Below, one piece after another: positions 18,167 to 53,773 of a stretch of 64,000 nucleotides of DNA. The stretch is from the IMG/VR virus record IMGVR_UViG_3300009502_000021, positions 44,298 through 108,297 of that record; one strand, written 5' to 3'. The DNA comes from a virus. Each line of letters begins with the position of its first letter. Within the stretch, counting starts at the first letter, position 1. Under the pieces are notes generated by a model. It searched no databases and was not told the origin of the DNA. It was given only the letters and a program-made list of their open reading frames with translations. Made by a program: the position numbers and the translations under genes.

Positions 18167-18174
18167 TGGTTGAA

Positions 18175-26254: not shown

Positions 26255-26578
26255 TTATCTCGTTACCAATCCCGCCGGGGCCGTAACAATGTTACTGGTC
26301 AATGTTGTGTAATGTGCTGCCATATCCGAATCGGGTGTGGCAAAAGCAACAATACTCGATGTCTTGATTTCTACTGGTTTGTCCTTATCGGCAAATACCA
26401 TCCACTTGTTCATCACCGGATGACCACCTTGGCCAATTCCAAGAGTGCATGGACGATATAGACTAATATGGATTTCATTTATATCCGAAACTGTTGCGAT
26501 GATTTCTTCACCCGAAGTTAGTTTCACTACCGTAATCTCATCCTTTTGAGGATGCGCTGAATTTTTATTAATGAGCAT
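26255..26578 (-). CDS. Sm-like (LSm-type) small protein
   Basis: 107 residues. ITVVKLTSGEEIIATVSDIN and EIHISLYRPCTL resemble the Sm1 strand pattern of small phage LSm-like proteins. Probably binds RNA or forms a ring, but this is inferred. It shares one base with the next gene. Confidence 0.5.
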   Translation of the reverse strand: MLINKNSAHPQKDEITVVKLTSGEEIIATVSDINEIHISLYRPCTLGIGQGGHPVMNKWMVFADKDKPVEIKTSSIVAFATPDSDMAAHYTTLTSNIVTAPAGLVTR

Positions 26579-26763
26579 TATTTTCTCCGCTTGCTCTTTA
26601 ATTTAGCCGACTTGTTTGGCTTGCCCGTAAAAAAGCCAACATCCGAAGTTGCTGCATCAACTGCCCGTGTTTGGATCGGTCCAATACCGCCGGATACCGA
26701 AGCAATGCCACCGGCACTAGAACTGCCGCTACTTGCTGTTTCCAAAAGTTCTTTAATTTTCAT
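26578..26763 (-). CDS. Short protein with capsid-targeting-like start
   Basis: 61 residues: MKIKELLETASSGSSSAGGI, then a flexible Gly/Ser part and a basic end (KSAKLKSKRRK). LLE/T could be a prohead-protease site. The flexible basic body resembles core or internal proteins that pack with DNA. Coupled to both neighbours. Confidence 0.55.
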   Translation of the reverse strand: MKIKELLETASSGSSSAGGIASVSGGIGPIQTRAVDAATSDVGFFTGKPNKSAKLKSKRRK

Positions 26764-28061: not shown

Positions 28062-28655
28062 TTACCAGGTAGCGTACCAGAGAAAAGTATTACCGGTGAG
28101 TGCATTTGTGACTCGCTTAATACCATATCCGAGCTGATTGAAATTATCCAACACAGCCTGCATACCGGCTGCACGAGTTTCGTCAGTTACCAATCCCTGC
28201 CAAACTCTATAATACATCTGTGCTTCAGTGTATGTGGCTGCTACCATAAATGGATCGGCAAGTTGAAATGTGCCGGGTGTGGTTGGGTAGATAAGTGTGA
28301 TGCTTGTAGTAGTGGTTGCATATGCTGCGAGGCCAGTAACGTTGAATCCTGTCGATGCCGAACCCTCGACATGATACGTGCCGTGTACATCGGGGGCAAT
28401 CAATTGTGGTAATGGTAGTGGAAACGTAACCAAAAACGGTCCGGAGCCGGCAACTGTTGGTGAACCACTAATTTCCCAAGTGGGTTCTGTTTGTGAGGTC
28501 CCGGTCATTGTTGTTTCGCCACCAATGCCCGCATTAACATATGCACCGGCTTGGACTGATGCTAGTACCGCTGTTTCAATTGCTTGAATCTCGCTTAATA
28601 CTACGGAAGTGTCGCCGGCTTGACTACGGGCTTGTGATGCAGTTGGGAAACTCAT
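28062..28655 (-). CDS. Probable virion structural protein
   Basis: 197 residues, rich in Thr, Gly and Ala, with beta-type segments (FLVTFPLPLPQLIAP and TTSITLIYPTTPG). It lies among scaffold and tail genes and is coupled to the next upstream gene (ATGA). Family not recognised. Confidence 0.55.
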   Translation of the reverse strand: MSFPTASQARSQAGDTSVVLSEIQAIETAVLASVQAGAYVNAGIGGETTMTGTSQTEPTWEISGSPTVAGSGPFLVTFPLPLPQLIAPDVHGTYHVEGSASTGFNVTGLAAYATTTTSITLIYPTTPGTFQLADPFMVAATYTEAQMYYRVWQGLVTDETRAAGMQAVLDNFNQLGYGIKRVTNALTGNTFLWYATW

Positions 28656-29140
28656 AGCCCTCTCCTCTTGGCTGCACGGTCGGCCATCTTCTGTACGGTA
28701 TCAATTCTCTTTACTTGTTCTTTATCTTCGTCGCTGTCAACGGCATCAACGTCAGTGCTATCCATCGGTGGTGCCGATATGTCGGTTGGCGATACTGGTG
28801 CACCGGAAGTATCCGGTGGGGTATCTAAGCCCAAGTCTCCAAGATCGCCCAAGTCGGACATGTCGTCACTTGGTGCCGGGGCTTCGGATGCGTGTGCCGA
28901 ATCGACTACGATTCCGGTATCATCTAAATCCGATATCTCGGAGGCCAATGTTGGGTCATTGTTCATTGCTGCTTCAATATCGGCCTTGGATATTGTGCCA
29001 CGGAAATTAACAAGGTGGGCTAGTTGGTCGTAAGAGATATGATATGGTTTACCAATCGTCTTACTGCGCACTAGCATCACATCAATGGCGTTCTTAAGTT
29101 TGGCCACCATTGGATCTTGGATCAGCTCGTCTAGTCGCAT
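28652..29140 (-). CDS. Probable prohead core-type protein with capsid-targeting-like start
   Basis: 162 residues. MRLDELIQDPMVAKLKNAID, a helical first half, then a low-complexity acidic tail (SDLGDLGDLGLD and DSTDVDAVDSDEDKEQ). Acidic, proline-rich tails are typical of T4 prohead core proteins. It lies next to a second core-like gene. Inferred. Confidence 0.5.
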   Translation of the reverse strand: MRLDELIQDPMVAKLKNAIDVMLVRSKTIGKPYHISYDQLAHLVNFRGTISKADIEAAMNNDPTLASEISDLDDTGIVVDSAHASEAPAPSDDMSDLGDLGDLGLDTPPDTSGAPVSPTDISAPPMDSTDVDAVDSDEDKEQVKRIDTVQKMADRAAKRRGL

Positions 29141-30583: not shown

Positions 30584-30976
30584 TTAAAACAATGCGAAAA
30601 CAGCCTTCGATAACTGACGCATTGCCTCCTTGTAACGATCTTCGGCTTGTTGCCTCTTTGCCCCGAGAGATTCATTTAGCCGTGAGGCCTGTGCAACAGA
30701 TTGCATATGATTATGTGCCAATCCAACTGCATGATCTAAGGTTAATATCTTATCCGCCATCCAAGGAGAATCGTTTGTTAAGCATTTGGCATAACCCATA
30801 GCACCCATTCTGGTACTAAGCCAAATAGATACATTGGGTCCGATTATTTCCCAAGTATTATCGCCAGCTGATTCGATCTTGAATGGACCCACTTTGATGT
30901 ATCTGGCTGTATCTTCTAGATAATCAACCAAATCCAATTTATCCATAATCAGCTTAACGGCGGCAACTTTACTCAT
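30584..30976 (-). CDS. Hypothetical protein of the lysis region
   Basis: 130 residues: MSKVAAVKLIMDKLDLVDYL, then a mixed fold with GPNVSIWLSTRMGAMGYAK and a helical C-terminus. Coupled by ATGA to the small gene upstream and just before the spanin pair. Unknown. Confidence 0.6.
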   Translation of the reverse strand: MSKVAAVKLIMDKLDLVDYLEDTARYIKVGPFKIESAGDNTWEIIGPNVSIWLSTRMGAMGYAKCLTNDSPWMADKILTLDHAVGLAHNHMQSVAQASRLNESLGAKRQQAEDRYKEAMRQLSKAVFALF

Positions 30977-31134
30977 TGGACCAAACCTTTTTGTTGTAGG
31001 CGGCGAAGGATAACTTCTTTTTCTCTCTCGTTTAATTTATCCTTCGAGACACCATCTTTCAACTTTTTCAATAGGTGCTTTTCTTCGTTGGACAGGAAAA
31101 GGGTAATACCGTCAGTAACCTCAAATAGTTTCAT
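30973..31134 (-). CDS. Hypothetical small charged protein, 53 aa
   Basis: MKLFEVTDGITLFLSNEEKH, then a Lys/Glu-rich helix (KLNEREKEVILRRLQQKG). Its ATG overlaps the stop of the holin-like gene and its stop overlaps the next start (ATGA on both sides). Unknown; possibly DNA-binding by composition. Confidence 0.6.
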   Translation of the reverse strand: MKLFEVTDGITLFLSNEEKHLLKKLKDGVSKDKLNEREKEVILRRLQQKGLVQ

Positions 31135-33022: not shown

Positions 33023-33028
33023 TATTTA
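33023..33028 (-). promoter_or_regulatory. Late promoter core 4 bases from ATG
   Basis: Minus-strand GCTAAATACAATATG; overlaps the end of the Nudix gene. Confidence 0.6.
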
Positions 33029-33457
33029 GCGCATATACCGTAGGATTGTCGAAACTGAATTTTTGTCTCCAAGCAATCTAGCTAAGCCGGGGTGTAATGG
33101 TTTGGGCCATTGTCCCCAATCAACCCACATATGAGCCTCGGATTCATACAAATCGAGCATCGGGGTAAATTCGTGATTGATTATAGCCAGAAAATTATGG
33201 TAAACAAAACTATTGTGATCATCCCTGTATACGAGCAACGGTGTTAGTTTATCGATTCCGCTAAATCCTGTTTCTTCAAGGACTTCTCGATACACGGTTT
33301 GCTTTGGCGTTTCATCTGGATCCATATTACCGCCCCAGGTACTCCATGTTCCCGGATAGCGCATAAATTCACTGCGCTTGCACAAACAAATTCTATTGGT
33401 AATTGTCGAAAGAATGATACACCCGGCGGCCCGATAAGTTATCTCACTCGTTTTCAT
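33026..33457 (-). CDS. Nudix hydrolase
   Basis: 143 residues. The Nudix box (G-x5-E-x7-REUxEExGU) is met by GGNMDPDE followed by REVLEETGF. It hydrolyses nucleoside diphosphates linked to another group (nucleotide sugars, damaged dNTPs or RNA caps); the substrate cannot be predicted. Starts MKTSEITYRAAG. Confidence 0.9.
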   Translation of the reverse strand: MKTSEITYRAAGCIILSTITNRICLCKRSEFMRYPGTWSTWGGNMDPDETPKQTVYREVLEETGFSGIDKLTPLLVYRDDHNSFVYHNFLAIINHEFTPMLDLYESEAHMWVDWGQWPKPLHPGLARLLGDKNSVSTILRYMR

Positions 33458-38671: not shown

Positions 38672-38697
38672 AACGCACAGTCCCACTTGGTTTGACA

Positions 38698-38703: not shown

Positions 38704-38708
38704 CAATT

Positions 38709-40936: not shown

Positions 40937-41531
40937 CCTGATTGTACAACTTGGTTCGATTATCGAGCCCGTTAGTACCACCGTTGATAATCTTTGTCAT
41001 GTGGACAATGTCGTCGGCGTCGGCTGCGGCATTAATGTTGTGCAAAGTCCAATACCAACCTGCGGACCGTGTGGCATCCAATGGTGTCTCGAGCAACGTT
41101 GGATTGGTAACTAAATCCAATTGCAACGATGTGCCGCAAAGAGTATAATTGGTCTTTCCGGTAATTTGAATTATTCCACGACCCCTAAATTTCCAACCTT
41201 CTCCCGATGCCTCGTCACCGTTGCCCATTCTGTTGGCGTACATGTGATTGGCAATCTTTTGTGGCTGGCGGGAATATTGATCGGCTACTTCCACAGATGG
41301 GAAGTATTTTGGATAGAGCGTATGCAATGCATCCGACGAGTAGTTTAGGTTTTCAACCACTGCACTAAAATTTCCACTTTCGTGGCAGCATTGAGCTAGA
41401 AAGCCGGCAATGCGATTCTTAGTGTTGATGCTGTTGGCATCCATTGTTGAATTTAGCGCATCGAGATACAATGCAAGATTTGCTTGCTTCGCCTGTGGAA
41501 ACATTTGTTCTAGTTGTGTTATTGTTATCAT
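40917..41531 (-). CDS. GH19 (chitinase-like) lysozyme
   Basis: 204 residues. IAGFLAQCCHESGNFSAVVE (catalytic Glu region), LNYSSDALHTLYPKYFP, ANRMGNGDEASGEG and WKFRGRGIIQITGKTNY are the typical GH19 lysin motifs. It cleaves peptidoglycan. With the SleB-type enzyme at 4257-4883 the phage has two unrelated lysins. One may be virion-bound. Confidence 0.9.
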   Translation of the reverse strand: MITITQLEQMFPQAKQANLALYLDALNSTMDANSINTKNRIAGFLAQCCHESGNFSAVVENLNYSSDALHTLYPKYFPSVEVADQYSRQPQKIANHMYANRMGNGDEASGEGWKFRGRGIIQITGKTNYTLCGTSLQLDLVTNPTLLETPLDATRSAGWYWTLHNINAAADADDIVHMTKIINGGTNGLDNRTKLYNQAKAVLP

Positions 41532-42232
41532 TGTGGTAGACTTAGGTCCTGTGTAGTTTTATTCTTGATGAACTTTGATAGCTTGGCAAGGAATCCTTGA
41601 TTACGAAGAATCTTGAATGCTAAATTTTCAGCACCATACATGCCGGCTTCGGCAATGCCGGACTTACGCATCTTAATAATCTTCTGACGAAGCGAATCCG
41701 CTCCATCAATGTCATCATGGGAAACAACTGTATCAATTGATCCCATTAAATCTCTAGTTTTTGCAGCAACCGCATGGTTATCGATTGTTGGTTTTTCTTT
41801 TACTGGCTCGGTAAGCCACACATTGTCGATGATCGAAAACGTACCATTGCTAACTGGCGGATGCTTAGATGATTCGGCATATAGCTCAACACTATATCCG
41901 TGGATGGTTATTGGGTAGTGATCATTCCATATTGCCTTCTTGGCTTGAAATAGTTGCTCAACTAGCTTGTCATCAAAGCCCAAGTCGTCGTGGTCATAAA
42001 CCACATGGACATCAAAGTCGCTGTATGGTGTGTAGTTATAGCTGGCCATTGATCCAGTAAGTTGAATGTCCATTAGTGGGAAATCTTCAATTTCCAAAGA
42101 TTCAATAAACTTTTCGGCTATTTGCAATAAGTGGTATCGAACCTCATGATCCAGTTCAGTGCCATTCCACACTTCGGGGTTGAGTGTATCGTGGAATTGA
42201 ATGTTCTTGTCTATGAATCTGGAGACGTTCAT
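41528..42232 (-). CDS. Nucleotidyltransferase-fold protein
   Basis: 234 residues from the ATG at 42232 (MNVSRFIDKNIQFHDT). LTGSMASYNYTPYSDFDVHV is the GS...D-x-D metal-binding motif of the pol-beta-like superfamily, with a further acidic strand near YSVELYAES. Could adenylylate a protein or RNA. It lies in the cluster of capsid-targeting-like genes; its own N-terminus fits only loosely. Confidence 0.65.
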   Translation of the reverse strand: MNVSRFIDKNIQFHDTLNPEVWNGTELDHEVRYHLLQIAEKFIESLEIEDFPLMDIQLTGSMASYNYTPYSDFDVHVVYDHDDLGFDDKLVEQLFQAKKAIWNDHYPITIHGYSVELYAESSKHPPVSNGTFSIIDNVWLTEPVKEKPTIDNHAVAAKTRDLMGSIDTVVSHDDIDGADSLRQKIIKMRKSGIAEAGMYGAENLAFKILRNQGFLAKLSKFIKNKTTQDLSLPQ

Positions 42233-42564
42233 TTCTTCCAAAAGTTGCTAATAGAAGCAACCATGTCCTTAAGGGCTTGGTCAGTGTCATCATCCTCTTT
42301 GTCATCTTCGGCTTTTTGGTTAACAGTTTTAAGTGGTTCATCGCCAACAGGATTTTCTTTGGTCAAGTCTGGACGGCTGAACCAAAGTTTGAACCATTGC
42401 TCCGTACCGGGCTTGATGTTTTTCTCGCGTTGAATCTTGCCTTTCTCGTTTCCGGTAATGCTTAGGTTACTTCCGGTCCATTTGCTCCAGTCAACATTCT
42501 TACCACCTTGTATAAAGTGGTCCAGGCCGGCAAGTTTACGAATGTCATCTAGTTCGTCGGACAT
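42229..42564 (-). CDS. Hypothetical protein, MSDELDDIRKLAGL start
   Basis: 111 residues. MSDELDDIRKLAGLDHFIQG is a start seen in small proteins of T4-like marine phages. The end is acidic then helical (EDDDTDQALKDMVASISNFW). TAATG overlap with the upstream gene. Unknown. Confidence 0.55.
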   Translation of the reverse strand: MSDELDDIRKLAGLDHFIQGGKNVDWSKWTGSNLSITGNEKGKIQREKNIKPGTEQWFKLWFSRPDLTKENPVGDEPLKTVNQKAEDDKEDDDTDQALKDMVASISNFWKK

Positions 42565-44327
42565 TACTTCTTTTCCTGCTTAGGTGTATCAAAATAGAAT
42601 TCCGGCGATGCTCGGGCTTGCCCATTGTTCCAGTTCACTCCGTTAACAAACGAAAAGACACTGTTTGGCTTGAGGATTTCCTTTTCAAATTGTGTCGCAG
42701 CAAATACTCTAAAACTTCTCGAATATCTGTTAAAGAATAGGAAGTGGTCCTTACCGCTTTCCTCTCCATCTTGTCTGTACATATATGCTGCCAAGTAACC
42801 CACATACTTCATGAAGTCACCGCGATAGCTAGTGTCAATGTGTCCATCCGAATCAATCATTGATTCAACCTTTGACAATACCATTGGGCGTGATATTTCA
42901 TCTACTGCCCACTTGTATGGAACCGACAGCATGTCGGTTAATAGTTTTGCTCGGTCTTTCTTACTGAGTTTCTTACCGAGACGATCAAATTCTTTATTGT
43001 AGTCCGCAAGACCCTTTTGTGTTAGCTTGAAGCGAGGAACCTTCGTACCCGGGTAGAAAAACTCTCGGAAGCCGTAACCTTCCAATATGTTCTTAACCAT
43101 TGGCCATGCTACCTTGCCAGTTACCAATGCCGATGCACCCATTACAGATCCACTGCGTCCTGTTCCCGATGGTCCCGATGACTTGACTTCGTATTTCTTA
43201 CCATTGATCATTAAGTCGCCCTTACTCAACTTGATTGTAAAGTCACCGAGCAGAATAAATGCTAGCTCACCCTTACCAACTTCGGAACTAGTGTCGGGCT
43301 GTACTTCGATAAAATCCGAAATGACTTTTTCAAACACTGGTTGTTGCGCACTATCAACGAAATCATCAATTTTACCTTTGCCACTGGAAATAAGAGACTT
43401 CATGTCGATAATCGATTTTTCTTTGTTGGCTGCAATTTTAAGAAATGCAATTGCATCTTCGGTATCGATTTTTCTTCTTCGGAAAATACCCACATACGTA
43501 TCGACTAACTTGTCCGATGGAATTGGTGTAAACTTATGCAGCATTTCTTTAACGGATGCAGTCAGTGCATCACCTTCGGCCACAGCCGCTTTCTTACCGG
43601 CAACAACACCGGCAACGTGAGCTTCTTTTGTAGCGTCAATTAAAATCTGTTCAATGCGGCTTCTTATGGCGGCATATTCCGGCGACGATGCTGGCAATGC
43701 TTGCGTAATGTCCTGGATAAGTTTTTGGGTTATGGCGTCAACGGAATCAACGTCGGTCTCCGGCGATTCAGTAAGTTCGGGTGTCATTGGTTCCTCGTGT
43801 TTCTTGAGTAAAGCATCAACCCATCGCGACAGCGCCTGAAGTTTCAGTTTAATTGGTCCGGCTTTACTTGGATCATCGTGTACTTCTTGCTGAATTATTT
43901 CCAGCTTATTAACAATTTCGTTGCCAACAGACTCTTTGATGATTGGGCGCTCGTCAAAGTAGTGTGGGAATGCCTTATCAAAATGGCGCATAATAACGCC
44001 GGCTTTAACGTGGGCATCGTTCTCTTCGGGACTTCCAGTCTTACCACTCTTTGGCCCAAGCTCTTGTTCAAGCCATTGTTTAAAGTGTGCTAGTTCATGG
44101 GCCAATGTGCGCAGCACATCGAGTGGGTGTCTATTCTTGACACCAAGGTATATAGTTGCTTTCTTATTGTCAAATTTACCAAACGTTGGTTGTTTGGGGT
44201 CGGAAACCCTCATCTCAAGTTCAATTGATGGTAGCTTGGTCAATCCCAACTCTTTCATTGCCAGGGGTAAAAAGTCGGCAAACGCCTTCATTAAATTCGG
44301 TTCTTCGGTGACTTCGATTATTCGCAT
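42564..44327 (-). CDS. Large putative packaged protein: HExxH metallopeptidase plus PD-(D/E)XK-like domain
   Basis: 587 residues, start MRIIEVTEEPNLMKAF (capsid-targeting-like). LRTLAHELAHFKQWLEQELG near residue 80 is a zincin motif. Near residues 350-375, GELAFILLGDF and DLMINGKKYEVKSS resemble the D...ExK core of restriction-like nucleases. The late core is 4 bases from the ATG. A protein with both protease and nuclease signatures and a head-targeting start could be an injected host-attack factor. Activities are inferred. Confidence 0.6.
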   Translation of the reverse strand: MRIIEVTEEPNLMKAFADFLPLAMKELGLTKLPSIELEMRVSDPKQPTFGKFDNKKATIYLGVKNRHPLDVLRTLAHELAHFKQWLEQELGPKSGKTGSPEENDAHVKAGVIMRHFDKAFPHYFDERPIIKESVGNEIVNKLEIIQQEVHDDPSKAGPIKLKLQALSRWVDALLKKHEEPMTPELTESPETDVDSVDAITQKLIQDITQALPASSPEYAAIRSRIEQILIDATKEAHVAGVVAGKKAAVAEGDALTASVKEMLHKFTPIPSDKLVDTYVGIFRRRKIDTEDAIAFLKIAANKEKSIIDMKSLISSGKGKIDDFVDSAQQPVFEKVISDFIEVQPDTSSEVGKGELAFILLGDFTIKLSKGDLMINGKKYEVKSSGPSGTGRSGSVMGASALVTGKVAWPMVKNILEGYGFREFFYPGTKVPRFKLTQKGLADYNKEFDRLGKKLSKKDRAKLLTDMLSVPYKWAVDEISRPMVLSKVESMIDSDGHIDTSYRGDFMKYVGYLAAYMYRQDGEESGKDHFLFFNRYSRSFRVFAATQFEKEILKPNSVFSFVNGVNWNNGQARASPEFYFDTPKQEKK

Positions 44328-44330
44328 CAG

Positions 44331-44744
44331 TTATTTAGCTCCAGATGTCCAAGCAAACTGTCTCGCATCACCCTTGCTTGCCTTGAATCCCAGAGAGATA
44401 TAAAACTTCTTGAGCTTACTCAACGGTGTCTTACTCTTGTCCCATGCAAATAGCTCTAGATTTATGCCGGCTTGCTTTGCTTCGTTTTGCAACTGTATCA
44501 TGCCACGCTTGCCAACACCCTTTCCCTGTGGAAATGCATGGACAAATTTAATCTCGACCCAATCGGGACCTTTGAAACTAGTTGTAAGCTCAAACAATGC
44601 AACCGATTGTCCTTCATCGTATACCATTCCAAATTCTTTGTTGTTCATTGGATTGGATGGATATTTGGCGTACATTGCATCGACAAACTTCTTTGCCGGT
44701 GTATTGTTATCGGAGAGCTTCAGTGCTACTTCACTGATTTTCAT
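44331..44744 (-). CDS. GNAT-like acetyltransferase with capsid-targeting-like start
   Basis: 137 residues, MKISEVALKLSDNNTP. IKFVHAFPQGKGVGKRGMIQ is motif A (Q-x-x-G-x-G, acetyl-CoA binding), and SKLKKFYISLGFKA is the usual C-terminal FYxxxGF. Substrate unknown. Coupled to the upstream gene by ATGA. Confidence 0.7.
   Translation of the reverse strand: MKISEVALKLSDNNTPAKKFVDAMYAKYPSNPMNNKEFGMVYDEGQSVALFELTTSFKGPDWVEIKFVHAFPQGKGVGKRGMIQLQNEAKQAGINLELFAWDKSKTPLSKLKKFYISLGFKASKGDARQFAWTSGAK
44332..44337 (-). promoter_or_regulatory. Late promoter core 4 bases from ATG
   Basis: Minus-strand GCTAAATAACTGATG, overlapping the stop of the acetyltransferase-like gene. Confidence 0.55.
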
Positions 44745-45949
44745 TTCTTTGGTTTTGCCTTGAGTCTTGAACGAGCGTATGCGATATATTGGGTATCATC
44801 CCCATTAACTAAATCATGCTTTGATATCTTTGCCGGAATGTTGGATATTGTTGCCGGTTCATCCCAGCTACTTCGAGGAGGTTCAACAACTTGATGGTTT
44901 TGTTTTTTCGCTGCCTTAATCTGGTCTCTGGAGTATAACGATCTCATGGTTTGCGTGATTAGATCTGGATCGTGGGCCAATCTATCCCATACCCTAGCAC
45001 CTGCTGCCGTTTGTGAGTGATCCGAAATCAAAACAAGGCCCAGTTTCATAATCAAATTCTTGTAGAATTCCGATGCCCAAACACGGTTACGTTTCATGCT
45101 GTCTAGACTTGAGATTTCAAAGGAAGCCAATTTACCTTTGAATGTTCGCATATGGCCACATACCTCAATGCACGACTGGCCATTGATGCTGCCGGCAAAT
45201 TTGTGATCGCGCACGCTGTAATATACGTCAACAGTATCTCTTAGGTGACTCTTAAAGGAGAATATCTTTTTAAAATCTTCATCTTCAAGATCTTGGGCAT
45301 CTGGCCAATAGATGCCTTTACTCACACTAGAAACTCGTTCTACTTCGTTAATTTTCATTTCTTTGATCCTCAATAAAGGAGGGTAGCCATCTTTGGTAAC
45401 CGAGTTACCAAACTTCTTGGCTTCGATGCTAGTCTGATCATAACCAACATCTTTTGTTTTATTTGTCTTGGTGATGCGGCCAACACCTTCGCCAACTGGC
45501 TTGGTAACACGCCGTAACACAAACTCGGGGAAAATATGGAATTTTGGAAAGTCGTTACATTCAGCTGGATTGACCCGCCTGTATCCAAACTTTGAAGCAA
45601 ACCGGTCTATCAACTTACCGTATAAACTCTTCCTACTCTCTTCCGACGCACTGAATATAAGGAACTTTGGATGACCGACTTCCTTTAGATACATTTCGAC
45701 GGACAATAACACTGTACCGAATATGGCAATTGCATCGCCTTGTTTTGTTACCTTTGTTTTTCCATTTCTATCAAATTCTATGTTGACCGTCCTATCGCTA
45801 GCAGTACCGATGGGATAAAAGCCAATAGCAAGTTCATGATCATCTTTTGTTCTGGCGTGAATATATGATATCTGGGATATAGAACCGCCATGTATTTGCC
45901 AACTAAGATAGTACGCTTTCTCGGGCTGGAATAATTCGTCGAGTCTCAT
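44741..45949 (-). CDS. Possible natural fusion of two capsid-targeting-like proteins
   Basis: 402 residues. It opens MRLDELFQPEKAYYLS and, at residue 198 (ATG at 45358, AGGATC upstream), a second typical start appears: MKINEVERVSSVSKG. The C-terminal half has LVLISDHSQTAAGARVWDRL, a motif of GNAT-like phage proteins. Either two genes fused by loss of a stop, or one gene with an internal start. Both halves are otherwise unrecognised. Confidence 0.6.
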   Translation of the reverse strand: MRLDELFQPEKAYYLSWQIHGGSISQISYIHARTKDDHELAIGFYPIGTASDRTVNIEFDRNGKTKVTKQGDAIAIFGTVLLSVEMYLKEVGHPKFLIFSASEESRKSLYGKLIDRFASKFGYRRVNPAECNDFPKFHIFPEFVLRRVTKPVGEGVGRITKTNKTKDVGYDQTSIEAKKFGNSVTKDGYPPLLRIKEMKINEVERVSSVSKGIYWPDAQDLEDEDFKKIFSFKSHLRDTVDVYYSVRDHKFAGSINGQSCIEVCGHMRTFKGKLASFEISSLDSMKRNRVWASEFYKNLIMKLGLVLISDHSQTAAGARVWDRLAHDPDLITQTMRSLYSRDQIKAAKKQNHQVVEPPRSSWDEPATISNIPAKISKHDLVNGDDTQYIAYARSRLKAKPKK

Positions 45950-46821
45950 ACCTTGCCTTCGCTAAACGAATGCACACGACGCTCGACCTTAGATACCCAT
46001 TCTTTACTTGGGCGGCCCGAACCATGATAGTATTGCAGCACCTTGCTTGGATCTTTGCGACTTACTAAGCACCACTTGCCATTGCGGTGGGCCAATGTTT
46101 CTTCGAGATTAACTTCCTTGAGATGCTCGTCACCAATCTTGTGACCCTCTTTCTCCATCTCCTCTTTCCAATCCTTGATCATTTCTTCTTTTTCTGGATT
46201 GCCGTTTAGCTTGTCAAGAATGCTTTCAACACTCAACACATCGTCGGCTTTAGCATTTGGTCCCAGCAATGTCTTGGCCACATAGTCTTGTTCCTGACCA
46301 CCGGTTAATGGATTGCCGGTTGTGCGCGAACTTAGGCCATTGAGCCAACTCCACTTGAGACCATGATGCTTGGCAACTGCGCTCAATAGCTTGTGCTTGT
46401 CGGCATCCTTAAAGGCGCTTGGCACTGCTGCCATGCTCCACTTTGAGAATCCGAGATTTGGAAGAAACATGAAATCTGTTTGCACGTAGCCGTTCTTACC
46501 GTCACCCTTGATTGGGGTACGAAAATGAACGCTGGATCCTGATTTCTTAATAAGTGCAGATTTGTCGTGCTTAACAGCCCATGCTGTAAGTTTGGTGGCT
46601 AGTTCTTCTTTATTGCTGGTGGCTACATCAATCCCAAGATCCAAATCGCCGCTGGATTCTTTGCGACCAGTAGTCCCAAGCATATTATCCAAAAGTGGTA
46701 ATCCGGTTAGCTTTTCAAGCCATGCAACAGTGGGTGCAACATCGGCTTTATTGATTCTTTGGGTTACATCGGGACCCTTCCAAACATTTCCACCTTCGAT
46801 TAGAAATTCTGTTGCTCGCAT
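45946..46821 (-). CDS. Nucleotidyltransferase-like protein with capsid-targeting-like start
   Basis: The start at 46821 gives MRATEFLIEGGNVWKG; LIE/G is a very good prohead-protease site match. LGTTGRKESSGDLDLGIDVA resembles a G-x...DxD nucleotidyltransferase core. A Glu/Lys-rich helix and a small C-terminal domain (HRNGKWCLVSRKDPSK) follow. RBS GAAGGG, late core in the shared palindrome at 46844-46857. Confidence 0.6.
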   Translation of the reverse strand: MRATEFLIEGGNVWKGPDVTQRINKADVAPTVAWLEKLTGLPLLDNMLGTTGRKESSGDLDLGIDVATSNKEELATKLTAWAVKHDKSALIKKSGSSVHFRTPIKGDGKNGYVQTDFMFLPNLGFSKWSMAAVPSAFKDADKHKLLSAVAKHHGLKWSWLNGLSSRTTGNPLTGGQEQDYVAKTLLGPNAKADDVLSVESILDKLNGNPEKEEMIKDWKEEMEKEGHKIGDEHLKEVNLEETLAHRNGKWCLVSRKDPSKVLQYYHGSGRPSKEWVSKVERRVHSFSEGKV

Positions 46822-46843
46822 AGATACACCCTTCAATTTTAAC

Positions 46844-46857
46844 TATTTAGCTAAATA
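46844..46857. promoter_or_regulatory. Palindromic divergent late promoter
   Basis: TATTTAGCTAAATA is a perfect 14-bp palindrome giving TAAATA on both strands. It lies between the minus-strand gene starting at 46821 and the plus-strand gene at 46878. Confidence 0.7.
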
Positions 46858-46877
46858 TTTCTATAAGAGGGTTTGAT

Positions 46878-48191
46878 ATGCGCTTCATAGAATTTGGACT
46901 ACTGCTCGAGGATGAAGTCCCAGCAGAAGAAACTACATTTGCTTATTCCGATACGGCCGAGATTAGTGCTGCTGCAATGCCGCTTTTACAGGCCAAAGTC
47001 GATAAGATTAACAAAAAAGCCGCAAAACTTGGTGCCCCAACTGTAACTCTTACAAAGGAAGAGGAATTTTACAAAGAGGTGCCATCTGAGCCGGGTGAGA
47101 AATCTGCTGTCAAAGAACTCTATTACAGAGTTAAGATTGCAGGTGCTGCCCCAAAAGTTGAGGGTTACAAATTCCTCGCCACAATTGAACACACTGCCGG
47201 GGGTAACATTATCCGTACTGCCCCGGGATACGAAGAAAATGCTAACATCAAGAAGTTTTATACTGCCCGTCCGGATTATTGCGATCATTGCCATAAAATT
47301 CGCCAACGAATAGATACGTTTATTGTTGCCGACGAGAAGGGCAACTTGCGCCAAATTGGGCGTAACTGCTTATCGGACTTCTTGGGTGGACTCGACCCAA
47401 AAGCCATGCTCTATTACTTCAGCTTGCGTAACTTGGTACAAGAGGCTGTCAAGGATGCCGAATCCGAGGGCGAAGGATCTATACGAGGTCATAAGAGAGA
47501 CAGAACCGTTGAACGTGATGTATTGCTCCGGACTGCGGCTGCAATGATTCGTGTGTTTGGTTACAGGAAGCGCATGGATCCAGTAGACGATTTTAGTTAT
47601 CGTCCAAGCACCGGCCAGGCACTATGGTGGGTATTCTTTGGTAACCACGACCCCAAGACTATGGATGACGAAGATAAGCAATGGCTCGAGCTTGCCAAGA
47701 ACGGCATCACTGCTGTGGATGACAAGGCAGTAAAGAATGCACTCGATTGGTTCAATGCATTACCCCCAGCCGAGAAGGACAACAATACCTTCTTGCATAA
47801 CTTGGACGTTATTCTTAAGGCGCCACAAGTATCAACACGCAACATTGGATATGCCGTTGCTGTATTCCCGTGCTACTATCGCGCACTCCACGCCGGTGAA
47901 CAAAAGAAAGAGCAGGCCAAGAAATCCAATGAATGGATTGGTAATGATGGTGACAAGTTTACCAATCTCAAAGTTACCATCATTGATACCAAGCTACTCA
48001 ATACAAACTTTGGTACCACGCAACTTGTCCGCATGGAGGATGAGAAGGGTAATGCTATCACGTGGTTCAACAGTGGTGCCAAGGCCGGCTTTGATAAGGG
48101 TGATCAGTTAACCATCAAGGGCACAATCAAAAAGCAAGATGAGTTTAAGGGTCGCAAGCAAACATTAGTAACGCGGGTTAAGAAATTATAG
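46878..48191 (+). CDS. Zinc-knuckle protein with capsid-targeting-like start
   Basis: 437 residues, MRFIEFGLLLEDEVPA. Near residues 135-170 CDHCHKIRQRIDTFIV and IGRNCLSDFLGG form a treble-clef-like zinc site (CxxC...C). The C-terminal 90 residues look like an OB-type beta domain (FTNLKVTIIDTKLL, DQLTIKGTIKKQ), so nucleic-acid binding is likely. Proteins with this zinc motif occur in many phages and plasmids without assigned function. RBS AAGAGGG. Confidence 0.65.
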   Translation: MRFIEFGLLLEDEVPAEETTFAYSDTAEISAAAMPLLQAKVDKINKKAAKLGAPTVTLTKEEEFYKEVPSEPGEKSAVKELYYRVKIAGAAPKVEGYKFLATIEHTAGGNIIRTAPGYEENANIKKFYTARPDYCDHCHKIRQRIDTFIVADEKGNLRQIGRNCLSDFLGGLDPKAMLYYFSLRNLVQEAVKDAESEGEGSIRGHKRDRTVERDVLLRTAAAMIRVFGYRKRMDPVDDFSYRPSTGQALWWVFFGNHDPKTMDDEDKQWLELAKNGITAVDDKAVKNALDWFNALPPAEKDNNTFLHNLDVILKAPQVSTRNIGYAVAVFPCYYRALHAGEQKKEQAKKSNEWIGNDGDKFTNLKVTIIDTKLLNTNFGTTQLVRMEDEKGNAITWFNSGAKAGFDKGDQLTIKGTIKKQDEFKGRKQTLVTRVKKL

Positions 48192-48519
48192 CCGATGCCG
48201 GAATGCTACCTTTGTGTAGTAAGTATCCTTCTGATTGTCCTGTGTAACGTAGATTATTTGGATCTAGTTTTGTTGCATCCACCGTAATGTAGTCGGATCC
48301 AAAGTATCCTTCTTTTGGAGCAAGCCACACATAGCCATCTGGGCTTGGCTCAGCAAATAATTGTTCGAGTTCTTTTTCCGATGGTCTTAGCTGATATCCT
48401 TTGATACCGGATGGATCTACTGATCGACCTCGGAGATTGTGATACAATAATGCGGGTGCTTCGGTGGTTGCGCGGCCCTTACGGCCAATTGGAATATTGA
48501 TAAATTCTTGGGCTCGCAT
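48178..48519 (-). CDS. Hypothetical protein with capsid-targeting-like start
   Basis: 113 residues: MRAQEFINIPIGRKGRATTE. Later YVWLAPKEGYFGSDYITVDA and YTGQSEGYLLHKGSIPASAI, a pattern like the C-terminal part of small ADP-ribosyltransferase-type folds, but no catalytic residues can be named. Convergent overlap of 14 bases with the plus-strand gene. Confidence 0.55.
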   Translation of the reverse strand: MRAQEFINIPIGRKGRATTEAPALLYHNLRGRSVDPSGIKGYQLRPSEKELEQLFAEPSPDGYVWLAPKEGYFGSDYITVDATKLDPNNLRYTGQSEGYLLHKGSIPASAIIS

Positions 48520-48992
48520 TAGTACATTACCTCAAAAAATGGTCCAGTGAGTACGCGGGTTGATTTTTCAACAACCAATTGCTCATTCATACGCTTTAGC
48601 ATTTCGGGAGTGATATCGCGGCGCTTGAGTCCATCGCGCATAAACAAATGCATTTCAAATGGTTTATCACCTTCGGCTGCTAGTACCGAAGTAACACGAT
48701 TGCGTCCTTCGTGTCCAGCAATCATAGCAGGCTTTGAGAGGTCGCCTTCCTCCCATTCGGACGGAATTCTGATGTCAAGGAACGGAGCGCCAATTGTTCC
48801 ACCCTTCTTAATATGAGCTACAATTTCCGGCTTTGGGTCATTGCCCAACGGTGCTGCTAAACGCAAGAAGGTACTTGGCTTCATAAGAACAGGAAAGCCC
48901 ATTGAATGTCTGCTACCAGTTGCAACATCACCATTGTATGGCACTGCCCCCCAACCTCGATCATTATCGATTACTACTTCGTTAATCTTCAT
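48519..48992 (-). CDS. ParB/sulfiredoxin-like protein with capsid-targeting-like start
   Basis: 157 residues from the ATG at 48992, MKINEVVIDNDRGWG. APFLDIRIPSEWEEGD and MIAGHEGRNRVTSVLAAEGD match the GHEGRxR motif of ParB-like domains in phages. Possible nuclease or NTP-binding role. Coupled to both neighbours. Confidence 0.6.
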   Translation of the reverse strand: MKINEVVIDNDRGWGAVPYNGDVATGSRHSMGFPVLMKPSTFLRLAAPLGNDPKPEIVAHIKKGGTIGAPFLDIRIPSEWEEGDLSKPAMIAGHEGRNRVTSVLAAEGDKPFEMHLFMRDGLKRRDITPEMLKRMNEQLVVEKSTRVLTGPFFEVMY

Positions 48993-48993
48993 A

Positions 48994-49824
48994 TTATAAA
49001 TCGTCCTGGTCGTCATTAAAATAAATTGGTACTTCACCAACTAACTGTAAGAAACTAGTGTCTAGCCAACCCGTCGATTCGCAATCCCAACCATACATAA
49101 ATCCGTTGTCATGCGACCCATATCCAATGTTACGGTGGCGTACAGCATCAAAATGTTTAACAACCTCGTCCCATGGGAACGTGGATTGCATTTGGAATCT
49201 TGTGCCATATCTAGCAACGTCTGGATCCGACCAATCGAAATCTTTTACACGCTCGAGCTTTTGAAATGCTGCCATAACTTGCTCGGCATCATGGTCGGAA
49301 TCAATTTCCAATACCAATGCTCCGGGCTTGACCTTGTACAAATATCCAACCGGACTCATCCAACCCTTCTGATTGTAGTAAGTCCACTTGACCCAATCGG
49401 AGCTATATCCCTTGTTTGTTTTGTATGCGGTGCTGGTCCAAAGATCAGCATTTGGTTTGTTGCGGCCCGGTGGCGCAACTGCCTTACCGGGCTTCAGTAA
49501 AGGAGCACCCTCTTCCAATGGATTATCTTCCCATTTCTGGTATGGCTCCTTAAGGTTACCATCGTCATCCCATGCATACCTGTTTGCCAAATTCTTTTTA
49601 GCTTTATCGTATTTGGTAAGGACACCGGGATGTGGGCGGGGCATAAACAACTGATATGTTCCGGCCAATTGTTCGCCGGCACGTTTGGCCCATTCCTTAA
49701 GATAGTTTAATGATTCCCAACCCGGGTTATATGGCACCGGTTCGGGTTTTGGCTTGGCCCTGGACTTACGTGGCTTTTTAGCCTTGGGCGCAGCCCCATC
49801 TTCAATGAGTTCGTGCGCCCGCAT
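48994..49824 (-). CDS. Putative packaged protein, possible ADP-ribosyltransferase fold
   Basis: 276 residues. MRAHELIEDGAAPKAKKPRK: LIE/D site then a basic Pro/Lys linker, very like T4 internal proteins. The body has NADLWTSTAYKTNKG and VGYLYKVKPGALVLEIDSDH, which could be an STS-type ADP-ribosyltransferase core, but the evidence is weak. Unknown function. Confidence 0.55.
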   Translation of the reverse strand: MRAHELIEDGAAPKAKKPRKSRAKPKPEPVPYNPGWESLNYLKEWAKRAGEQLAGTYQLFMPRPHPGVLTKYDKAKKNLANRYAWDDDGNLKEPYQKWEDNPLEEGAPLLKPGKAVAPPGRNKPNADLWTSTAYKTNKGYSSDWVKWTYYNQKGWMSPVGYLYKVKPGALVLEIDSDHDAEQVMAAFQKLERVKDFDWSDPDVARYGTRFQMQSTFPWDEVVKHFDAVRHRNIGYGSHDNGFMYGWDCESTGWLDTSFLQLVGEVPIYFNDDQDDL

Positions 49825-49826
49825 TA

Positions 49827-51473
49827 TTATTCTTCATCGCCACCAACAAGTTTACCCTTGAATGGGTGCTTCTTTGGTTCATTGGTAATAACTGGGCTAA
49901 TATTCTTGGCCTTAACCTTTGGTCCAAGCTGTCCGGCGCGTTCCTGGTCATCGTCGAGACCTTCGGCCTTAATACCGAGGCTCTTCATGATTTCCGGATC
50001 GATTGCACGGCCGCCACCAAGTGCGTTGTGTGCATCATATCCGCGCTTAATATCTCTCTCGGGCTTGGTTGATGTACCTTTACTATCTTTAGCATGGTAA
50101 TCATAATACGAAGTTTCGTCAACTGCCTTCCACGGATTTGGTTCGTCGATGCCGTTAACTTCGTTATAAGCATCCCACATGTCAATCAAGTATTGATCGT
50201 AACTCTTGTAGCCGGCTGTTTTTGCAGCACGATCAAGGTACTTAGTAGCACCACCGTTTGTGTCGATGCCGTACTTGCGCAACTTAGGAAGAATATAATC
50301 CATTGGATCAACGTCTGGAACTGCCTTTCCAACTGCATCTTCAACTTCATGCCAAAGAGAAGAATAATCAACAGTTGATTTTGTCTTCTTGTTTGCGGCT
50401 TTTGCTGCTGCACGAGCTGCTAATTCAGCTTCACGTTCTTTTTGTTTGCGCTCTTTGTTGGCCTTTGCAATGTACTTAGGATTAATCTCGCCGCCGAATG
50501 CTTCCCAAATCTTGGATTTATCGTGTGGCAATCCAACAGCCTTCAATGCCTTGGCTTCGGCATATTCCGGCTTGATGTTGTAATACAAATCCTTGGACTT
50601 GAGGTGTTTCATAACCTCTGGATTGTCGGCGTACTTTTCAAGTAATGCTTTCCATGCAGCAACATACGCATCGTGTTCGCGTTGTTGGCCGGCTGCGCCC
50701 CAACCCTCATTAATTCCTGTGCCTTTGCAGGCGGTGCATTTAATTTTCTTGGCACCTTTCTTGTTATCGGCATGCTTCTTGCCATCTGGTGTCTTGTACA
50801 GAACCTTGCGTCCACAGCAGGTTTTGCAGTTTGTATCCTTTAACTTCCCATGTGGACCATTCATGTGGTCAACATCATGGGAGAAATCTTCAGTAACCAA
50901 TCGTGCCCAGTTCATCATTGGATGATGACCTTGTTTCTTTGCTGCGGCCATCGCTTTGCTTTTTGCTTCTTCTTCCGACGATGCGCCAACAACAAGTTCT
51001 ATTGCTTGATGTGGTCCCACATCCATGCATACTGTCCACTTAGTGGCCTTTCCTTTATCTTCGGCAACTTCTTGTTCTAGTTCATCTTCAATCATACCGT
51101 CGCGCAACTTGACCGACTTTGGTCCGGTTGGCGAAAACAGTGTTATAAAGCCCGTAGTGCTAATCTGACTGCGTTGCTTAATTTCACCAATCTCGCTTGC
51201 TTTGATAGGGCGGGCCGCACCTCTTGGTAGTAACTTCTTACCACTCTGTAATTTCTTGGACAATAGATCCTTAAGAATCGCGTCGGCATTATCCAACACA
51301 ACCTTCCTTGCCTCTTCGGCATTGGATGCAAGTACCCGATATTCGCGACCACTGTAGTCGGGATACTTACCGTTGTAATAGTTGTTTTTGATAACAACGT
51401 CCCATACCGCCAATCCTTGAATCTTAGAGAATATGGCTTTGTTATCTTCTGTTAATACGTCTGTGATCTTCAT
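49827..51473 (-). CDS. Large putative packaged protein with DnaJ-type zinc motif
   Basis: 548 residues from the ATG at 51473: MKITDVLTEDNKAIFSKIQG (LTE/D site). CKTCCGRKVLY and CTACKGTG form a DnaJ-like CxxCxGxG pair. Lys/Ala-rich helices (KANKERKQKEREAELAARAA) and a long C-terminal helical region follow. It may be structural inside the capsid or an injected factor. Not recognised. Confidence 0.55.
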   Translation of the reverse strand: MKITDVLTEDNKAIFSKIQGLAVWDVVIKNNYYNGKYPDYSGREYRVLASNAEEARKVVLDNADAILKDLLSKKLQSGKKLLPRGAARPIKASEIGEIKQRSQISTTGFITLFSPTGPKSVKLRDGMIEDELEQEVAEDKGKATKWTVCMDVGPHQAIELVVGASSEEEAKSKAMAAAKKQGHHPMMNWARLVTEDFSHDVDHMNGPHGKLKDTNCKTCCGRKVLYKTPDGKKHADNKKGAKKIKCTACKGTGINEGWGAAGQQREHDAYVAAWKALLEKYADNPEVMKHLKSKDLYYNIKPEYAEAKALKAVGLPHDKSKIWEAFGGEINPKYIAKANKERKQKEREAELAARAAAKAANKKTKSTVDYSSLWHEVEDAVGKAVPDVDPMDYILPKLRKYGIDTNGGATKYLDRAAKTAGYKSYDQYLIDMWDAYNEVNGIDEPNPWKAVDETSYYDYHAKDSKGTSTKPERDIKRGYDAHNALGGGRAIDPEIMKSLGIKAEGLDDDQERAGQLGPKVKAKNISPVITNEPKKHPFKGKLVGGDEE

Positions 51474-51480
51474 TGACTGT

Positions 51481-51741
51481 TTATTCCTTGTCAGTGCATG
51501 GATTTTCTGCGCGGTGCAAACTGTTCTTGAACTTGTTCGCTTCCTGTAACTTAATTGCGTTGAGTAGCTTGCGCTCCAAATCATGGGCCACAGCTGGTTC
51601 ATAATTCTCTTTGATGAGAGTAATCAAATGTATTGCGCTATTGATAACATGATCCGCGCGACTGGCGATAATGTCCTTACGGCTCTTAGTTGGTACTAAG
51701 CCATTAATCTCTTCAAGAATACTACGAGTTTTATACTTCAT
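51481..51741 (-). CDS. Hypothetical protein, capsid-targeting-like start
   Basis: 86 residues, MKYKTRSILEEINGLVPTKS; ILE/E is a possible site. The rest is helical (HVINSAIHLITLIKENYEPA). The start at 51741 is an ATG 9 bases after the upstream stop; TTG 51753 is the alternative. Confidence 0.55.
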   Translation of the reverse strand: MKYKTRSILEEINGLVPTKSRKDIIASRADHVINSAIHLITLIKENYEPAVAHDLERKLLNAIKLQEANKFKNSLHRAENPCTDKE

Positions 51742-51749
51742 GATAGTTA

Positions 51750-52304
51750 TCAACCCCTTCTCGGTTGTGCAGTCGAAAGAAGTTCTTTTGCAAACTTTGC
51801 TTTGTCGTCTGGTGATAATTGATTTGCTTGGGCCAATAATTGGTCCAGGGAAGGCTGCGTATTAACCGGAGCCTTTTGGGGTGCTACGGGCTTGGGTGCT
51901 GCCGGAGCTTGTGGTGTGGGTGGCGAGTTACGAATGGCTGATAATTGCTGTGTATATCGATACATTGCATTTGTTAACGCCGGGCTGTTTATTGGATACT
52001 GTGTCCGTAATGTATTATCTACTGCGGCCGCTGCGGTTCTACCTTTTTGATTTCCGAAGCCCCAGCCGGGAAAATGCTCACCAGCGTCGATTAAATCCTG
52101 AAATGATATTGATTTCTTTCCGGCTTTCCCGGCAAATTGATTGGCTTCGGACGCCAATGCTCGAGCACGGGCCACGGACTCTTGCTGCCCTTTGGCTACA
52201 TTATTTCCCAATTTTGCAGATACTGCGGTTGCTGCTCGGCCGAGTATTCCGGTTGGATTGAGTTCATTCAAAACCGGGTCGTTCGAAAATTCATCTAAAC
52301 GCAT
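51750..52304 (-). CDS. Hypothetical protein, capsid-targeting-like start
   Basis: 184 residues, MRLDEFSNDPVLNELNPTGI, then Ala-rich helices, a Pro/Ala linker (TPQAPAAPKPVAPQKAP) and a helical end. The composition fits a flexible internal protein. Late core at 52328-52333 and GGAG site. Confidence 0.55.
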   Translation of the reverse strand: MRLDEFSNDPVLNELNPTGILGRAATAVSAKLGNNVAKGQQESVARARALASEANQFAGKAGKKSISFQDLIDAGEHFPGWGFGNQKGRTAAAAVDNTLRTQYPINSPALTNAMYRYTQQLSAIRNSPPTPQAPAAPKPVAPQKAPVNTQPSLDQLLAQANQLSPDDKAKFAKELLSTAQPRRG

Positions 52305-52357: not shown

Positions 52358-53773
52358 TTAATTATTACTCATGTTCTTGAGCATTTCCTTGAGGCGTGAG
52401 CTGCTAGTTTTAGCTGCTAATGCAGTATCATCGGGGGATTCAATAATCCCCGTGCTTGGATTTGGAACCACTGTACTGCGAGTTTTTAAGTTGGATAATA
52501 TTGATCCGCTACTTGGTTGCGAGTTACCCGAATTTGCCGAATTTCTGATGCGCAAAGTATCAATATCAAATTCAAGCTCTACTTTTCTACCCACTCCCGA
52601 GCTACTTCTGGTCTTCATAAACTGAACTTGATACAACCCGCGTTCACGCATTGCCCTGCTGGTAAAAATACCAATTACGTTGTCGGCTGTGTTAATCTTA
52701 GACAACCCGCCCGCAATGTGAGAATGGTCAAATTCAACTTCCTCAACTGCACTTCTATTCAACTGGCTACCAGTTATGGCCACACAATTGAACTCCTTTG
52801 CTAGATTACGCATTTCTTCGGATACATACTTGTCCTTCACGAACAAGTTTGCCGGATCAACCTTCTTGCTGTTGGCACTGCACAAGTCGAGATAGTCGAT
52901 AATAACAAAGTCCGGCTTGATATTCTTACGGGTAATGTACTCTTTGATGTATGCTCTAAAGTCATTGCAACTACTGCCCGATGGCATATACTTAATTTGC
53001 AATGCCCCGGATTGCTTGCCCGTTATACGCACCTTGAGCTCAACGTCATCAATCTTCTTGAAGATTTCCCTTGATGGAATATCTGTAATCATACTGTCGA
53101 GTCGCATGGCGCACAGAGATTCACTAAGTTCAAGTGTAAAGTAGATTCCACTCAATCCCGCTAGTGCCCAATTGAGTCCGAGATTCTGCATGAGAAGACT
53201 CTTACCCGATCCGGAGCCTCCGGCCCAAATTGTAAGCTCACCCCTGTTCAAGCCACCGTACAATGCATGATCAATATCCGACCACCCGGTACTCACTTGG
53301 CCGTTACCATCGCGCAATGCTAGTAATCGCTTACGTGGATCTTCAAAGTAATCAGTACCAATATCCTTGGTCAAACCAATTTGCACTGCTGCCTTGATCT
53401 TGTTTTCAACCTCGCCATAATGACCGGTTTCAAGCAAGTCGGCGCTGGCAATAATTGCTCGCTCCAATGCCTTGTGTCTACTAAACTGTTCAAACTCATC
53501 AAGCAACCATTCTGTGTGCCCGTCTGTTAGTCCTTCGATTCTTTCAAAGCTAACTCCGGTTTGTGCTTTAATCTGTTCTATTGTCGGAAGTACCTTGTAT
53601 TCCTCAACGTGCTTGTAGATAAAATCTGCCGATGGTCTTAAACTGCGATCAAAGTTTTCCGAATCAAAAATCGATACCACACGCACAAATGTTTCGGCAT
53701 CATGCAATAGCATTTGCAAATACAACTTCTGTACTTCGGCATCGTAATTCCTAATCGGTTCTTTCTCTTTCAT
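52358..53773 (-). CDS. Replicative DNA helicase, T4 gp41/DnaB type
   Basis: 471 residues. An N-terminal helical domain, then the RecA core: Walker A AGGSGSGKSLLMQN, PDFVIIDYLDLC (Walker B), and ITGSQLNRSA (H3/sensor region). It forms the hexameric replicative helicase that partners the primase encoded directly upstream. Overlaps the primase stop by 23 bases. Ser/Asn-rich C-terminal tail. Confidence 0.92.
   Translation of the reverse strand: MKEKEPIRNYDAEVQKLYLQMLLHDAETFVRVVSIFDSENFDRSLRPSADFIYKHVEEYKVLPTIEQIKAQTGVSFERIEGLTDGHTEWLLDEFEQFSRHKALERAIIASADLLETGHYGEVENKIKAAVQIGLTKDIGTDYFEDPRKRLLALRDGNGQVSTGWSDIDHALYGGLNRGELTIWAGGSGSGKSLLMQNLGLNWALAGLSGIYFTLELSESLCAMRLDSMITDIPSREIFKKIDDVELKVRITGKQSGALQIKYMPSGSSCNDFRAYIKEYITRKNIKPDFVIIDYLDLCSANSKKVDPANLFVKDKYVSEEMRNLAKEFNCVAITGSQLNRSAVEEVEFDHSHIAGGLSKINTADNVIGIFTSRAMRERGLYQVQFMKTRSSSGVGRKVELEFDIDTLRIRNSANSGNSQPSSGSILSNLKTRSTVVPNPSTGIIESPDDTALAAKTSSSRLKEMLKNMSNN

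What the first reader, a model, noticed from the sequence alone, without database searches (positions are those of the whole stretch)
41528..52304. Large family of proteins with T4 capsid-targeting-like N-termini
At least 18 proteins in the window start M-[KR]-x-x-E-[FLIV], for example MRASEFLIEA, MRATEFLIEG, MRAHELIEDG, MKIKELLETA, MRIIEVTEEP, MKITDVLTED, often with LxE or IxE a few residues on. T4 IPI-III (MKTYQEFIAEA) and Alt use such a leader to enter the prohead, where gp21 cuts after L/IxE. Most lie in the 41.5-52.3 kb block, others at 1-1.7, 17.7, 26.6 and 28.7 kb. Their bodies differ widely: ADP-ribosyltransferase-like, metalloprotease, nuclease-like, nucleotidyltransferase-like, GNAT, ParB-like, zinc proteins. 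This may be an expanded armoury of injected effectors.
Basis: partly seen in the sequence, partly recalled or inferred. Interest (0 to 1): 0.88.

Follow-up and report, generated by a model that had tools for sequence, protein, structure and literature searches.

The report
Phage tag for packing proteins inside
A giant, distantly T4-like phage gives the same short N-terminal tag to about 20 otherwise unrelated proteins; the evidence says the tag loads them into the phage head, so they probably enter the host cell with the DNA.

Summary
M-[KR]-x-x-[ED]-[FLIV] begins 20 of 145 genes of the 108-kb contig (0.5 expected), including 10 of the 12 genes at 41.5-52.3 kb. The best reading is a capsid-targeting leader that works like T4's CTS, one residue shorter (phi3-x-E5-phi6 instead of phi4-x-E6-phi7), often followed by a gp21-type L/I-x-E site.

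Three independent tests support packaging. (1) A profile trained on metagenomic relatives was applied to Pseudomonas phage PA5oct: 8 of its 10 best-scoring N-termini are virion proteins by mass spectrometry (30% base rate, p=0.0014). (2) With one residue inserted, the same profile ranks T4 IPIII, IPII, Alt and IPI 2nd, 3rd, 4th and 7th of 130 T4 genes. (3) Leader genes sit just downstream of the DnaB-like helicase (25/112 protein families, against 3/115 upstream); that block is virion-rich in PA5oct and Atu_ph07. Five large relatives encode the gp21 protease; the window's own contig, a fragment, shows none.

The leader is portable: it sits on Nudix, 5'-nucleotidase-like, ParB-like and other bodies, and orthologs carry different leaders that keep the motif. 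Injection and effector activity are not shown, and the suggested ADP-ribosyltransferase fold was not confirmed. It is a new variant of a known kind.

The parts
833..1714 (-). MRASEFLIE|A leader on a 293-aa 'YRG' family protein (phrog_11975); three paralogs elsewhere in the contig
   Evidence: phrog_11975 E=2e-41; residues 1-32 of the AlphaFold model mostly pLDDT<50, body folded
17725..18156 (-). MKIDEV leader, 143 aa, unknown body; late-promoter-like ATAAATA just before the ATG
18396..18938 (+). MRRTDF leader on a 5'(3')-deoxynucleotidase-like (NT5C) body; ortholog in relative G001 starts MKLTEIGESKP
   Evidence: Pfam NT5C 31.6 bits over cut-off, domain from residue 11
26578..26763 (-). MKIKELLE|TASSG small protein (phrog_17311); ortholog in G001 MKIHELLEDASAG
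28652..29140 (-). MRLDEL leader, 162 aa; ortholog in G001 starts MRLMELIEDP
30973..31134 (-). MKLFEV leader, 53-aa protein
33026..33457 (-). MKTSEI leader directly on a Nudix hydrolase; G001 Nudix protein starts MKINEFHPTNETKR
   Evidence: Pfam NUDIX 54 bits
42564..44327 (-). MRIIEVTE leader, 587 aa, metalloprotease-like N-terminal domain (HELAHFKQW); leader-bearing relative G001 206331-206738 (MRSREFITES)
   Evidence: HExxH read from sequence; BLASTP 35% over 125 aa; no Pfam hit
44331..44744 (-). MKISEV leader on a GNAT-like body
   Evidence: Pfam Acetyltransf_10 E=3e-4, below cut-off
44741..45949 (-). MRLDEL leader, 402 aa; second complete leader MKINEVE at residue 198 after a linker, so probably a fusion of two leader genes
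45946..46821 (-). MRATEFLIE|G leader, 291 aa; C-terminal small domain shared with PA5oct 262106-262300, itself a leader protein
   Evidence: BLASTP 51% over 53 aa
46878..48191 (+). MRFIEFGLLLE|DE leader added to a phrog_2319 protein; homologs in SCTP-2, Aeh1 and RpAliso lack it
48178..48519 (-). MRAQEF leader, 113 aa, unknown body
48519..48992 (-). MKINEV leader on a ParB/sulfiredoxin-like body (GHEGRNR); homologs keep the motif with different leaders
48994..49824 (-). MRAHELIE|DG leader, 276 aa; homolog L197 has an unrelated first ~50 residues that still start MRIDEI
49827..51473 (-). MKITDVLTE|D leader, 548 aa, unknown body with a CxxC-rich segment
51750..52304 (-). MRLDEF leader, 184 aa, gene nearest the helicase
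52358..53773 (-). DnaB-like replicative helicase, the syntenic anchor of the leader-gene block

Best explanation
The shared N-terminus is a portable capsid-targeting signal that works like the T4 CTS. Late in infection each leader-bearing protein binds the prohead core (gp22/gp67/gp68-like) through the hydrophobic residues at 3 and 6 beside the acidic residue 5, and is enclosed when the shell closes. In about half of cases the gp21-type prohead protease then cuts after L/I-x-E around residues 8-12 and frees the cargo, which stays with the DNA and is probably ejected into the next host. The phage keeps a swappable set of such cargo genes, mainly just downstream of its DnaB-like helicase. Supported by comparison and by published proteomics of a related phage: a specific leader, virion association, cleavage-site enrichment, protease present in relatives. 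Inferred: the core contact, cleavage in this phage, ejection, and action on host targets.
For: Leader enriched about 40-fold over internal Met and also seen in relatives G001 17, G003 15, G004 8 against 0.8-1.5 expected. A profile trained on these four phages puts 8 MS-detected virion proteins in the top 10 PA5oct N-termini (93/307 overall, Fisher p=0.0014; MS notes in the GenBank record). One of these, 82921-83142, lies between portal and protease, the place of T4 gene 67. T4 positive control: IPIII, IPII, Alt and IPI rank 2, 3, 4 and 7 of 130. In T4 the CTS is 10 residues, targeting maps to residues 4 and 7 and processing to 8 and 10 (PMC9026906), matching the conserved positions here with a one-residue shift. 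L/I-x-E in residues 7-16: 31/74 leader proteins against 108/952 others, p=3e-10, shuffles 11 (max 25). Peptidase_S77 in five of five large DnaB-selected relatives. DnaB-downstream families 25/112 against upstream 3/115. In Atu_ph07 the cluster CDS 31-76 beside DnaB (gp70) gave 29 virion proteins by MS (PMC6102473) and contains a tandem array of 11 genes starting M[KR]WxQL[TN]E or a close variant. CBB_299 (MRFSQITEDA) is MS-positive (PMC5259590).
Against: No Peptidase_S77 was found in the window's own 108-kb contig; the contig is a fragment, so this is inconclusive. In a second set of ten records, only two encoded it. Across all PA5oct genes the leader score does not separate MS from non-MS proteins (Mann-Whitney p=0.38); only the top of the ranking does. 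About half of the leaders have no L/I-x-E site. No N-terminal peptide or cleavage data exist for these phages in what I could read. The late-promoter-like ATAAATA is not enriched at leader genes.
Confidence: 0.8

Rival explanations
1. The leader is a head-targeting signal, but the cargo is mostly structural core or head protein rather than injected effectors.
For: Some leader proteins look conserved and structural: PA5oct 130473-131921 (482 aa, MS-positive) lies among terminase and head genes, several leader families recur beside DnaB across many relatives, and the 73-aa protein between portal and protease carries the leader.
Against: Bodies in the window include Nudix, 5'-nucleotidase-like and ParB-like proteins, vary between relatives, and exist elsewhere without the leader, as expected of accessory cargo.
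Confidence: 0.3
2. The leader addresses proteins to something else: a phage replication compartment, a host complex such as RNA polymerase, or a protease adaptor.
For: A short N-terminal motif on diverse proteins fits any address tag; about half the leaders lack a cleavage site.
Against: 8 of the 10 best PA5oct matches are virion proteins, and the same profile picks out T4's known internal proteins.
Confidence: 0.1
3. The pattern reflects common ancestry or duplication of 5' ends, or a translation-initiation preference, without a targeting role.
For: Four paralogs of one family share it in this contig.
Against: Leader DNA is only 42% identical with varied codons; bodies are unrelated; orthologs keep the motif while the rest of the leader changes; phiKZ, SPO1 and B23 lack enrichment.
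Confidence: 0.05

Closest known systems
T4 capsid-targeting sequence of IPI, IPII, IPIII and Alt
   Same: Short N-terminal signal on unrelated bodies; hydrophobic pair three residues apart with an acidic residue before the second; L/I-x-E site; T4-type prohead protease in relatives; hypervariable cargo
   Different: One residue shorter (E at 5, not 6); [KR] at residue 2 by definition; roughly 8-20 copies per phage instead of 3-4; larger bodies, some enzyme-like; block beside the DnaB-like helicase
T4 Alt (packaged ADP-ribosyltransferase)
   Same: Leader-bearing multi-paralog 'YRG' family with conserved R, S/T and E positions that by eye recall the ART R-S-E pattern
   Different: hhalign with Alt probability 0.1%, no PDB fold or sequence match; not filed as ART
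phiKZ/SPN3US inner-body and ejection proteins
   Same: Many head proteins cleaved after x-x-E by a gp21-like protease and ejected
   Different: Most SPN3US propeptides are long (over 100 residues in several), and the phiKZ motif is S/A-x-E; a phiKZ stretch has no such leader
MuF-fused and polyvalent head-packaged effectors
   Same: Diverse enzymes carried in the head (PMC9503650)
   Different: Those are packaged by fusion to structural domains; here by a leader of about 10 residues

Membership tests
T4-type capsid-targeting sequence | Short N-terminal segment shared by otherwise unrelated proteins | tested here: met
T4-type capsid-targeting sequence | Hydrophobic targeting residues three apart with acidic residue between (T4 Y4, E6, F7) | tested here: met
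   residue 3 hydrophobic in 76% (28% in other genes); residues 5 and 6 are part of the search pattern (E in 74% at residue 5); T4 map from PMC9026906
T4-type capsid-targeting sequence | Same register as T4 (E at residue 6) | tested here: not met
   E at residue 5; T4 proteins score only after a one-residue insertion. Hence filed as a variant that works like it, not as a strict member
T4-type capsid-targeting sequence | gp21 cleavage motif L/I-x-E following the targeting part | tested here: met
   31/74 against 108/952; absent in roughly half of the leaders
T4-type capsid-targeting sequence | gp21-type prohead protease (Peptidase_S77) in the same phage | tested here: inconclusive
   not in the 108-kb fragment; present in five of five large DnaB-selected relatives; in 2 of 10 further records
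T4-type capsid-targeting sequence | Proteins present in virions | tested here: met
   for the related phage PA5oct only: 8 of the top 10; not for this phage
T4-type capsid-targeting sequence | Leader removed by cleavage | not testable with these tools
   needs N-terminal peptide data
T4-type capsid-targeting sequence | Leader sufficient to package a foreign protein, and cargo ejected into host | not testable with these tools
   needs fusion and ejection assays
ADP-ribosyltransferase (YRG family, 833-1714 and paralogs) | ART fold | tested here: not met
   AlphaFold model pLDDT 78; no PDB fold match at E<=0.001; no PDB sequence match
ADP-ribosyltransferase (YRG family, 833-1714 and paralogs) | R-S-E motif residues | tested here: inconclusive
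   R87, R113, N115, E268 invariant and G69, S116, T120 nearly so in 13 sequences, but assignment is by eye

The most novel reading that the evidence does not exclude
A widespread lineage of T4-related jumbo phages uses a minimal (about 6-10 residue) import code to load roughly 10-20 different enzymes and inhibitors per virion from an exchangeable gene block beside the replicative helicase. The code would let packaged effectors be read directly from sequence and would expose new injected enzyme families such as the multi-paralog YRG family.
Probability: 0.5. Interest if true: 0.82.

Novelty: new variant of a known kind. Interest (0 to 1): 0.64.

Why it matters
Most genes of jumbo phages have no assigned role. 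A short, testable N-terminal code that predicts which proteins ride in the head would pick out candidate host-takeover and anti-defence proteins in uncultured phages. T4's IPI, IPII and IPIII were recently shown to inhibit distinct type IV restriction enzymes (PMC12373910), so packaged cargo is a rich place to look. It would also offer a minimal tag for loading proteins into large phage heads.

Tried and rejected
ART assignment of the YRG family: fold search, PDB profile search and hhalign with T4 Alt all negative. Second structure model (48994-49824) was unusable, pLDDT 39. Late-promoter enrichment at leader genes: none. Defence-system library: nothing useful; NCBIfam: nothing over cut-off. 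Mean-score comparison over all PA5oct genes: not significant. CBB as a second proteomics test: only two leaders in 100 kb, one MS-positive, and none in a further 50 kb. Leader-like starts I set aside as coincidence: dCMP deaminase 3748-4260 and, outside the window, genome 17602-18045 and 26872-27066. Atu_ph07 per-protein MS data are in a supplement I could not open.

Full report
Setting. The window is bases 44298-108297 of a 108,297-bp linear IMG/VR virus fragment. Its DnaB-like helicase (52358-53773) is closest to jumbo phages distantly related to T4: PA5oct-type Pseudomonas phages (49% identity), Atu_ph07, Phosso, XaC1, SCTP-2, CBB and GAP32. A 266-kb IMG/VR record (G001, helicase 76% identical) is the nearest long relative.

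Observation. I called 145 genes. M-[KR]-x-x-[ED]-[FLIV] begins 20 of them, against 0.48 expected from internal Met codons, 0.8 from shuffled N-termini and 3.4 from column permutation. Ten of the twelve genes in 41.5-52.3 kb carry it. The DNA is not conserved (42% identity, many codons), so the similarity is at the protein level. It recurs in three long relatives (17, 15 and 8 genes against 0.8-1.5 expected) and is not enriched in stretches of phiKZ, SPO1 or cyanophage B23.

Virion test. The GenBank record of PA5oct marks proteins found in virions by ESI-MS/MS. A position weight matrix trained only on the four IMG/VR phages was applied to PA5oct N-termini: 8 of the top 10 are MS-positive, against 93 of 307 overall (p=0.0014). 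The strict pattern alone gives 6 of 10 (p=0.047). The effect is confined to the top of the ranking; the whole distribution does not differ (p=0.38). One of the two top-ten misses is a 64-aa protein beside two MS-positive leader proteins.

T4 control. With one residue inserted, the same matrix ranks IPIII, IPII, Alt and IPI 2nd, 3rd, 4th and 7th of 130 T4 genes. Published mutagenesis of the IPIII CTS puts targeting at residues 4 and 7 and processing at 8 and 10; an aspartate at 10 allows targeting but blocks processing (PMC9026906). The jumbo leader keeps the same order, one residue earlier. Leaders without a good cleavage site (for example MKINEVVID) may therefore be targeted but unprocessed; this is inference.

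Cleavage sites. T4 gp21 cuts after L/I-x-E (PMC9026906). Among 74 non-redundant leader proteins, 31 have L/I-x-E in residues 7-16, against 108 of 952 other proteins (p=3e-10) and 11 (max 25) in shuffles. The next residue is usually D, A, N, G or S. All five large relatives examined first encode Peptidase_S77. The window's own contig does not, but it is incomplete. In ten further records two had it.

Genomic place. In 42 DnaB loci, leader genes are 81 of 267 downstream genes and 5 of 344 upstream genes; after removing redundancy, 25 of 112 families against 3 of 115 (p=3e-6). In PA5oct the block just downstream of DnaB (148.4-160.6 kb) is mostly MS-positive. In Atu_ph07 the paper reports a virion cluster CDS 31-76 with 29 MS-identified proteins and names gp70 as the helicase (PMC6102473). 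Counting back from it, 11 tandem genes starting M[KR]WxQL[TN]E or a close variant (about gp53-gp63) lie inside that cluster; which of them were detected is in a supplement I could not read.

Portability. Homologs of the 46878-48191 protein in SCTP-2, Aeh1 and RpAliso lack the leader. Homologs of 48519-48992 start MRAHEIFE, MRATEFISE and MRAREFLSE, with near-identical bodies in the last two. A homolog of 48994-49824 has an unrelated first ~50 residues but still starts MRIDEI. Orthologs of 18396, 26578, 28652 and 33026 in G001 all keep the motif. The 402-aa protein 44741-45949 contains a second leader after a linker, as if two leader genes had fused.

Cargo. Firm: Nudix, 5'-nucleotidase-like. 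Suggestive: GNAT-like, ParB-like, metalloprotease-like. The four-member YRG family, homologous to the Atu_ph07 array, looked ART-like by eye, but fold and profile searches did not support this; its matches are uncharacterised proteins of Atu_ph07 and other, mostly uncultured, phages. Its leader segment is predicted disordered.

Literature. Signal-sequence-based detection of internal proteins is established in T-even phages, at least ten IPs (PMC12373910), and head-packaged ARTs and Nudix proteins are proposed broadly (PMC9503650). I found no paper in the searched open library describing this expanded leader family in jumbo phages; that library lacks most subscription journals, so priority is not proven.

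Verdict. A T4-CTS-like head-targeting leader, expanded and shifted by one residue: 0.8. Injection and effector roles: about 0.5-0.55.

Noticed in passing
window 36015-40105 (+): A ribonucleotide reductase gene (class II-like) appears split over three ORFs by two split inteins: N-extein + IntN with GIY-YIG endonuclease (36015-37199), IntC + middle extein + second IntN (37196-38671), free HNH (38649-39449), IntC + C-extein (39449-40105).
   Followed up: partly
G003 (L104-L120); also window 18161-18167 and 18384-18390: Late-promoter-like ATAAATA ends exactly 5 nt before the start codon of 16 genes in G003, suggesting leaderless late mRNAs.
   Followed up: no
window 44741-45949, residues 160-197; G001 106165-107100: A linker ITKTNKTKDVGYDQTSIEAKKFGNSVTKDGYPPLL recurs after different domains in leader proteins; role unknown.
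   Followed up: no
window 45946-46821 C-terminus; PA5oct 262106-262300: A small NGKWxLVSK domain occurs alone behind a leader in PA5oct and at the C-terminus of a leader protein here.
   Followed up: no
PA5oct 84079-84711 and 180349-181020: Two annotated head maturation proteases, both MS-positive.
   Followed up: no
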